This document shows positions 29,718 through 30,704 of a stretch of 64,000 nt of DNA, piece after piece. Location of the stretch: the NCBI GenBank assembly GCA_024231905.1, contig JAAEQC010000165.1, positions 51,463 to 115,462 on the forward strand. The letters are read 5' to 3'. Under the pieces are notes generated by a model. That model saw nothing but the letters and a program-made list of their open reading frames with translations. It had not been told where the DNA came from and ran no database searches. The position numbers and the translations under genes were made by a program. Position 1 is the first letter of the stretch; each line of letters begins with the position of its first letter. This stretch comes from a bacterium. Lineage in GTDB: Bacteria > Krumholzibacteriota > Krumholzibacteriia > LZORAL124-64-63.

Positions 29718-30704
29718 CTAGTTCTCCTCCTGGGCATCGGGGGCAGCCCCACCCTTGCTGGACAAGGTCTTGAACCAGGCCGTGATCGCTTCGATCTCGC
29801 GGTCGTCGATGATGCCGGTAAACGAAGCCATGATCGGTTGGTAGCCCGCGATGACCGAGATATTCGGCTCGAGGATGGACTGACGGATATAGGCGTCATC
29901 CGCCAGGACGCGTGCACCTTCGATGGTGTCGAACTCGTACCCGTAGAGGTCCTTGAACGAGGGGCCTACCAGCTTCGTGCCATCCACGGAGTGGCATGCG
30001 GCGCAACCATGGCGCGTGTACAGCAATTCGCCGACCTCCACCAAGGTGCGGCCCTTGAAGATGTCCGACACCTCCTCCATCCAGGCTCCGAAGTCCACCG
30101 GCGCATGGGCCACGAGTTCCGACCTCATGTCGGCGAAACCGTCGCCGCTGAAAGTATTGCTCTGCAGGGCGTAGGTGCCCGGTGTGGTGACCTCGAACCA
30201 AGCCTGGACCTCCCGACCGGGCACGGCCGCCTTGTTGACGCGCAGGGCGGGCACGGCCAGGCTGTGGGATACATCGGTGCTCCCGAGGTTCAATCGGATC
30301 GGGCGACCCACCGGCACGTGCAGCGTGTCGGCGACGTGGCCGTTGGGATAGGTGAATTCCCAGGCCCATTGGCTGGCCGTCACGTCGATCTCGAAGGCGC
30401 CCCAGGGTGGAGTCGTCTGGTTGATGAAACCGGGCAAACCGGTGATGAAACCGAAAAGCGCCAGACCCATGGCCGCGGCCACCCACAGGGTCACGAATAC
30501 CGGATTGGGGCGCCCGGTGACGGCCCCCAACTGGTCACGGTCCTGCCGGCGATAGACCCGCAACTGGATCAGGACCAGCCCCATGAACAGAGCCAGGAAG
30601 CACACGGCCGCGAAGTAGATCCAGTAGAAGGGCTCGTCCACACTCGCAGCATGAGTCGAGGCCGCTTCCGGGAACCAAGTGGATAGAAGGGCGCTGCCGG
30701 TCAA
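29718..30704 (-). CDS. Cytochrome oxidase subunit II-like protein with C-terminal cytochrome c domain and degenerate CuA site
   Basis: VSHSLAVPALRVNKAAVPGR...GTYALQSNTFSGDGFADM aligns to CoxB cupredoxin; CAACH in C-terminal domain. Confidence 0.85.
   Translation of the reverse strand: MTGSALLSTWFPEAASTHAASVDEPFYWIYFAAVCFLALFMGLVLIQLRVYRRQDRDQLGAVTGRPNPVFVTLWVAAAMGLALFGFITGLPGFINQTTPPWGAFEIDVTASQWAWEFTYPNGHVADTLHVPVGRPIRLNLGSTDVSHSLAVPALRVNKAAVPGREVQAWFEVTTPGTYALQSNTFSGDGFADMRSELVAHAPVDFGAWMEEVSDIFKGRTLVEVGELLYTRHGCAACHSVDGTKLVGPSFKDLYGYEFDTIEGARVLADDAYIRQSILEPNISVIAGYQPIMASFTGIIDDREIEAITAWFKTLSSKGGAAPDAQEEN

What the first reader, a model, noticed from the sequence alone, without database searches (positions are those of the whole stretch)
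29718..30704. CoxII-like subunit with ablated CuA site but retained cytochrome c domain
Seen: the usual CuA loop (QCAEYCGTGHARM type) reads QSNTFSGDGFADM: both Cys are Ser, Glu is Thr and His is Phe; the upstream His (DVSHS) and the Met remain. The C-terminal domain keeps a heme c motif (CAACH). Loss of CuA together with loss of CuB/heme ligands in the neighbouring subunit I argues for concerted functional change; electrons could enter the heme c but would have no CuA acceptor.
Basis: partly seen in the sequence, partly recalled or inferred. Interest (0 to 1): 0.85.

Follow-up and report, generated by a model that had tools for sequence, protein, structure and literature searches.

The report
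Dead oxidase kept on alternative complex III
In a phylum of uncultured bacteria, the oxygen-reducing enzyme normally attached to a respiratory complex has lost its metal sites for using oxygen but is still conserved, apparently as a membrane platform whose remaining heme passes electrons to other enzymes such as those of nitrate, nitrous oxide or low-oxygen respiration.

Summary
Window 29718-30704 (-) encodes a caa3-type subunit II with all CuA cysteines, the Glu and one His replaced. Its heme c (CAACH plus a conserved axial-Met candidate) is intact. The adjacent subunit I (28131-29717) has lost every CuB ligand, the cross-link Tyr and the heme a3 His. It also lacks one of the two low-spin heme a His, the D- and K-channel residues and the Mg site, yet keeps the COX1 fold.

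Both genes end an alternative complex III operon (actABCDEF-small-coxII-coxI). The pair is not a quinol oxidase, a pseudogene or an artefact. The same state occurs in at least 28 Krumholzibacteriota-phylum genomes, forms one clade and is under purifying selection (dN/dS 0.06-0.38). Related genomes carry a canonical caa3 in the same place. CuA and CuB losses always go together; COX3 is missing, and heme a synthase nearly so. Heme c is kept in every complete copy, and constraint has moved from the cupredoxin to the heme c domain.

Clade II nosZ operons (11 loci) or an NrfH-like cytochrome (9) follow the pair; narGHJI does in the window.

Best reading: a non-catalytic docking and electron-exit module of ACIII. 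The function is inferred, not shown. I found no published description.

The parts
38233..38961 (-). ActA, membrane-anchored pentaheme cytochrome c of alternative complex III
   Evidence: 5 CxxCH motifs; syntenic in relatives
35081..38200 (-). ActB, molybdopterin-oxidoreductase-like/Fe-S subunit of ACIII
   Evidence: ORF and Fe-S cysteine motifs; synteny
33572..35032 (-). ActC, NrfD-like quinol subunit
   Evidence: PF03916 5.9e-24; the only strong ActC copy in the genome
33012..33572 (-). ActD
   Evidence: synteny, 65-81% identity in relatives
32337..33008 (-). ActE, monoheme cytochrome c
   Evidence: PF13442 2e-13, 1 CxxCH
31078..32286 (-). ActF, second NrfD-like membrane subunit
   Evidence: synteny, 63-78% identity in the ablated-type operons
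30744..31061 (-). small one-TM protein between ActF and CoxII
   Evidence: no Pfam family; syntenic homologues in ablated and some canonical operons
29718..30704 (-). CuA-less, heme c-bearing CoxII-like subunit (the finding)
28131..29717 (-). CoxI-like subunit without CuB, heme a3 and one heme a ligand, COX1 fold kept
27368..28084 (+). pentaheme c7/c3-type cytochrome between the two gene clusters (opposite strand)
   Evidence: PF14522 3.5e-8, 5 CxxCH; membership in the system not established
26257..27159 (-). membrane-anchored diheme cytochrome c ahead of narG (Thermus NarC-like position)
   Evidence: PF00034 3.9e-13, 2 CxxCH, C-terminal TM
22572..26207 (-). NarG
   Evidence: TIGR01580, 1428 bits
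20961..22511 (-). NarH
   Evidence: TIGR01660, 635 bits
20209..20955 (-). NarJ-like chaperone (by position only; no Pfam match)
   Evidence: position between narH and narI
19493..20215 (-). NarI
   Evidence: PF02665 5e-63

Best explanation
The pair is a non-catalytic remnant of a caa3 oxidase that stays a subunit module of alternative complex III (ACIII). Menaquinol is oxidised at ActC and electrons run through the Fe-S and ActA hemes to ActE, as in known ACIII. In R. marinus ActE is a direct donor to the cytochrome c domain of caa3 subunit II, and that step is probably preserved here. Beyond this heme the inward path (CuA, heme a, heme a3/CuB) is gone. The CoxII heme c would therefore act as a fixed exit port that reduces other cytochromes: the diheme cytochromes c of the neighbouring nos/nar genes and CcoP of cbb3. 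CoxI would only anchor and position it beside ACIII. Shown here: loss of cofactor ligands and proton channels, preserved fold, purifying selection, synteny with ACIII, retention of heme c, and linkage to nos, nar, NrfH-like or cbb3 genes. Inferred: physical association with ACIII, the direction of electron flow and the identity of the acceptors.
For: CuA and CuB ligands are lost together and only in this clade. D/K-channel, Mg and propionate residues are lost too, while the COX1 fold is kept (TM about 0.9). dN/dS is 0.06-0.38, like canonical copies. Heme c CxxCH and Met are in 120/120 homologues and even in the most decayed copy, G008. Pairwise identity of the heme c domain rises from 45% (canonical) to 63% (ablated), while the cupredoxin domain falls from 59% to 49%. 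The pair directly follows actF-small in every contig long enough to tell except L053. The window genome has one ACIII, no cytochrome b of bc1, cbb3 and qNOR as its only other HCO-type genes, no COX3, no CtaA and no Sco. Its only class I cytochrome c hits are ActE, this CoxII, the diheme protein and one beside the CcoNO gene, presumably CcoP. NosZ follows at 11 loci against 0 of 16 canonical ones (Fisher p=0.003). R. marinus: ActE donates directly to subunit IIc (PMC5928083).
Against: No biochemistry exists, and physical association with ACIII is assumed from synteny and homology. COX3, the contact between complexes in F. johnsoniae (PMC8361435), is missing, so a different interface is needed. 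NarGHI has its own quinol-oxidising NarI, so narGHI adjacency in the window need not mean electron transfer from this module. Class A members keep both low-spin heme His, so some cofactor may remain in CoxI. The nosZ statistic is not corrected for shared ancestry.
Confidence: 0.6

Rival explanations
1. Pure scaffold: CoxI/II only stabilise or assemble ACIII, and the heme c domain is not on the main electron path.
For: CoxI is nearly devoid of cofactor ligands yet conserved. ActE could reduce soluble carriers directly, and the authors of the F. johnsoniae deletion study discuss split electron paths at ActA/ActE (PMC8552683).
Against: A scaffold would not need its heme c domain to become the most conserved part of CoxII, nor CxxCH/Met in 120/120 homologues and in G008.
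Confidence: 0.2
2. Class-specific residual chemistry: class A members bind one or two b-type hemes in CoxI and do something other than O2 reduction (for example electron storage, NO or ligand sensing); the window's class B then lost even this.
For: Class A keeps H79/H389 and often H387 and H300. Heme a synthase is missing, so any heme would be b or o.
Against: With CuA lost there is no obvious electron entry to a buried heme. H387 varies (H/Q/Y/R) and most propionate Arg are lost even in class A. It cannot apply to the window protein.
Confidence: 0.1
3. Decaying genes: the operon is losing its oxidase and the genes are transient pseudogenes.
For: Progressive ligand loss from class A to class B to G008.
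Against: Full-length ORFs, dN/dS 0.06-0.38, one old clade across many genera, and new class B residues (R80, D389) fixed in nearly all members of that clade.
Confidence: 0.03
4. A quinol oxidase: CuA is missing because quinol, not cytochrome c, is the donor.
For: Quinol-oxidase subunits II also lack CuA, and subunit I matches QoxB/CyoB structures by sequence.
Against: Subunit I lacks CuB and heme a3 ligands, which all quinol oxidases need. Heme c is retained, CoxB is the best model and the closest fold is caa3 subunit II 2yev_B. The operon already has a quinol oxidoreductase.
Confidence: 0.01
5. An ion channel, proton leak or transporter built from the COX1 fold.
For: A conserved polytopic membrane protein without a redox centre.
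Against: In the window D-channel D and N, K-channel K and the N121-like residue are all replaced, and they are lost or variable across the clade.
Confidence: 0.05

Closest known systems
ACIII-caa3 oxygen reductase supercomplex of Rhodothermus marinus (ActABCDEF + caa3; PMC5928083)
   Same: Same operon logic, pentaheme ActA, heme c-bearing subunit II next to ActE, COX1-fold subunit I
   Different: CuA, CuB, heme a3 and (class B) heme a ligands, proton channels and COX3 all lost; no oxygen reduction possible by the known mechanism
caa3-type cytochrome c oxidase subunit II (Thermus thermophilus 2yev_B; Rhodothermus c domain 1w2l)
   Same: Best fold match for CoxII; heme c domain is the closest solved sequence
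   Different: CuA ligands C, E, C, H replaced
aa3-600/bo3 quinol oxidases (6kob, 1fft)
   Same: Subunit II without CuA
   Different: They keep the binuclear centre in subunit I and have no heme c
Clade II (Sec-dependent) nitrous oxide reductase operons
   Same: nosZ, diheme cytochromes c, nosD, napH-like genes downstream of the pair; NosZ CuA intact
   Different: Placed behind an ACIII operon that ends in a dead oxidase; linked NosZ has a conserved C-terminal tail of about 118 residues not matched in other NosZ of the phylum
nar genes next to ACIII-like six-gene clusters in Planctomycetota/KSB1 (PMC10732223)
   Same: Nar beside actABCDEF-type genes
   Different: The passages read there describe no CuA/CuB-less CoxI/II

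Membership tests
Cytochrome c oxidase (A-type heme-copper oxygen reductase) | CuB site: three His and cross-linked Tyr | tested here: not met
   T250, V299, Y300, F254 against H, H, H, Y in 26/26 canonical
Cytochrome c oxidase (A-type heme-copper oxygen reductase) | Six invariant metal-ligand His including both heme a His and the heme a3 His | tested here: not met
   Only H79 kept; Q387, D389
Cytochrome c oxidase (A-type heme-copper oxygen reductase) | CuA site in subunit II | tested here: not met
   HSTSFM against HCECHM
Cytochrome c oxidase (A-type heme-copper oxygen reductase) | COX1 fold and sequence homology | tested here: met
   PF00115 4e-66; TM about 0.9 to 1ar1_A/2yev_A
Cytochrome c oxidase (A-type heme-copper oxygen reductase) | Heme a supply (CtaA) and COX3 in the genome | tested here: not met
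   0 hits for PF02628 and PF00510 in G000; the assembly is 95% complete
Quinol oxidase (QoxA/CyoA type) | CuA absent but intact binuclear centre in subunit I | tested here: not met
Alternative complex III | actABCDEF with pentaheme/hexaheme ActA, Fe-S ActB, NrfD-like ActC and ActF, heme c ActE | tested here: met
ACIII-oxidase supercomplex | Oxidase genes directly behind actF | tested here: met
ACIII-oxidase supercomplex | Physical association of the two complexes | not testable with these tools
   needs biochemistry

The most novel reading that the evidence does not exclude
A respiratory supercomplex has been re-targeted. ACIII with a disarmed caa3 serves as an adaptor that feeds quinol electrons through the CoxII heme c to N2O reductase (whose own CuA domain is homologous to the one CoxII lost) and other periplasmic acceptors, making N2O and microaerobic respiration ACIII-coupled.
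Probability: 0.35. Interest if true: 0.88.

Novelty: new variant of a known kind. Interest (0 to 1): 0.78.

Why it matters
Pseudoenzymes are familiar among soluble enzymes. I know of no described heme-copper oxidase core that has lost CuA, CuB and heme sites, been conserved over a whole lineage, and still sits in a respiratory operon (my own knowledge plus the paper searches). If right, it shows how a respiratory supercomplex can be converted from oxygen to other acceptors by removing cofactors one by one. The order of loss can be read from living intermediates. It also suggests a quinol-to-NosZ electron route for clade II N2O reducers, an open question to my knowledge. Annotation pipelines would count these genes as aerobic cytochrome c oxidases, which misstates the metabolism of these organisms.

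Tried and rejected
Quinol oxidase: rejected, since subunit I lacks the binuclear site. Pseudogene or assembly error: rejected (dN/dS, more than 25 assemblies). A dedicated ACIII-to-NarGH path: weakened because NarI is present. Wider occurrence outside the phylum: one genome-contig scan found only canonical ACIII-linked relatives elsewhere, though the scan reaches only pattern-matching loci. A Cu-type nitrite reductase was not found in the window genome. The NosZ fragment in the window genome lies at a contig end and is too short to judge. Paper searches found no description; most subscription papers and preprints are not held.

Full report
OBSERVATION. The ORF at 29718-30704 (-) is a 328-residue CoxII homologue with two TM helices, a cupredoxin domain and a C-terminal heme c domain. 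Relative to canonical subunits from the same phylum the CuA set H-C-E-C-H-M reads H-S-T-S-F-M. Heme c (C234xxC237H238 with Met292) is intact. The nearest solved sequence for the c domain is 1w2l, a cytochrome oxidase subunit II c domain (Rhodothermus caa3), and the best fold match is Thermus caa3 subunit II. The next gene, 28131-29717 (-), is a COX1 homologue (PF00115 4e-66) whose AlphaFold model (pLDDT 86) superposes on aa3 oxidases at TM about 0.9. It has lost the CuB ligands (T250, V299, Y300), the cross-link Tyr (F254), the heme a3 His (Q387) and one heme a His (D389). The D-channel D and N, the K-channel K, the Mg site and both propionate Arg are also gone; these are kept in 25 or 26 of 26 canonical relatives. 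Only H79, a helix-II heme a ligand, remains.

SETTING. Both genes form the end of a complete alternative complex III operon, actABCDEF-small-coxII-coxI, followed by a pentaheme cytochrome on the other strand and a diheme cytochrome-narGHJI-narK-narK cluster. The genome (94.7% complete) has one ACIII and no bc-type cytochrome b. Its only other HCO-type genes are a cbb3 CcoNO fusion and a qNOR-like protein. It has no COX3, no heme a synthase and no Sco. Its only class I cytochrome c hits (PF00034) are ActE, this CoxII, the diheme protein and one next to the CcoNO gene, presumably CcoP. Electrons from ACIII therefore cannot go to a dedicated caa3 here and most plausibly leave through these cytochromes.

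FAMILY. Two protein searches returned hundreds of relatives. In 82 genomes of the same phylum (names: Candidatus Krumholzibacteriota/Krumholzibacteriia) subunit I hits fall into two groups. Ligand states read from fetched loci show at least 28 genomes with the ablated pair, while related genomes carry a fully canonical caa3 behind the same actF. CuA and CuB states are perfectly linked. Outside the phylum every ACIII-linked relative found by one genome scan with a readable pair was canonical. On the subunit I tree, built without the ligand columns, the ablated copies are one group (46 rows, SH-aLRT 100). Within it the window's class B, which has lost the second heme a His and gained R80/D389, is one clade of 27. 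The simplest order is thus CuB/CuA first, heme a3 variably, low-spin heme a last. The root and the sister group are uncertain because of a long branch. Pairwise dN/dS of 0.06-0.38 matches canonical copies, so the genes are under selection for function.

WHAT IS BEING KEPT. CxxCH and Met292 are present in 120/120 homologues. They persist even in G008, where ACIII is followed by a barely recognisable CoxI (26% identity, CuB gone) and a CuA-less CoxII, then a copper ATPase and cbb3. Within CoxII the cupredoxin domain is less conserved than in canonical copies (49% against 59% mean pairwise identity), but the heme c domain is more conserved (63% against 45%). Selection has moved from CuA to heme c.

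NEIGHBOURS. Immediately downstream of the ablated coxI lies a clade II nosZ operon with diheme cytochromes c and nosD at 11 loci, and an NrfH/NapC-like multiheme cytochrome at 9. In G003 the nos operon lies upstream of actA in the same direction, and in G062 cbb3 genes do. None of 16 canonical ACIII-caa3 loci had nosZ (Fisher p=0.003, not corrected for ancestry). The linked NosZ keeps its CuA and has a conserved C-terminal tail of about 118 residues not matched in other NosZ of the phylum. cbb3 occurs in nearly all of these genomes. Heme a synthase is found in 2 of 27 ablated-type genomes against 14 of 20 with canonical ACIII-caa3 (p=2e-5), so even class A could mostly hold only heme b or o. 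G063, which carries both operon types, was counted with the canonical genomes; G008, which also carries both, was left out.

MECHANISM. In R. [quoted passage not shown] I propose that this step survives and that the path beyond it was removed, turning CoxII heme c into an exit port held in place by CoxI. The F. johnsoniae work suggests that ACIII bound tightly to its oxidase may react poorly with soluble cytochrome c (PMC8552683), which would make such a port useful. Cofactor-ligand loss, selection, synteny and heme c retention are shown; association, electron flow and partners are inferred. Confidence 0.6.

COMPARISON. It works like the donor half of an ACIII-caa3 supercomplex but is not a member of the oxygen reductases: several defining features were tested and not met. 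Nor is it a quinol oxidase. Nar genes next to ACIII-like clusters were reported in Planctomycetota/KSB1 (PMC10732223), and the passages read there do not describe ablated oxidases. I found no publication on this pair in the held library.

Noticed in passing
window 10548-14150 (+): Two multiheme c-type cytochromes flank a predicted beta-barrel (10548-11519, 11509-13092, 13056-14150), resembling a porin-cytochrome extracellular electron transfer cluster.
   Followed up: partly
window 17653-19449 (-): NarK-like MFS transporter fused to a C-terminal DoxX domain, next to a second MFS/NarK-like gene.
   Followed up: no
L083:1806-4184 and homologues: NosZ behind the dead oxidase carries a conserved C-terminal extension of about 118 residues, not matched in other NosZ of the phylum; a possible docking element.
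   Followed up: partly
L074:6638-8996 (G008 contig C17): An even more degraded CoxII/CoxI pair behind ACIII with heme c still present, followed by a copper ATPase and cbb3 CcoNO.
   Followed up: partly
Genomes G036-G039, G048, G050-G053, G057, G058, G062, G065 and others: Many genomes with the dead pair also have a canonical-ligand A-type oxidase elsewhere (not ACIII-linked in those examined) but no detectable heme a synthase; that oxidase may use heme b or o.
   Followed up: no
G053 contigs C94, C143, C236; G042 and G063: G053 appears to hold two dead-oxidase operons; G042 and G063 hold both dead and canonical versions, although bin contamination is possible.
   Followed up: partly
L128:513-1178, L088:12210-12968: An extra diheme cytochrome c gene sits directly between the dead coxI and nosZ in several genomes.
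   Followed up: partly
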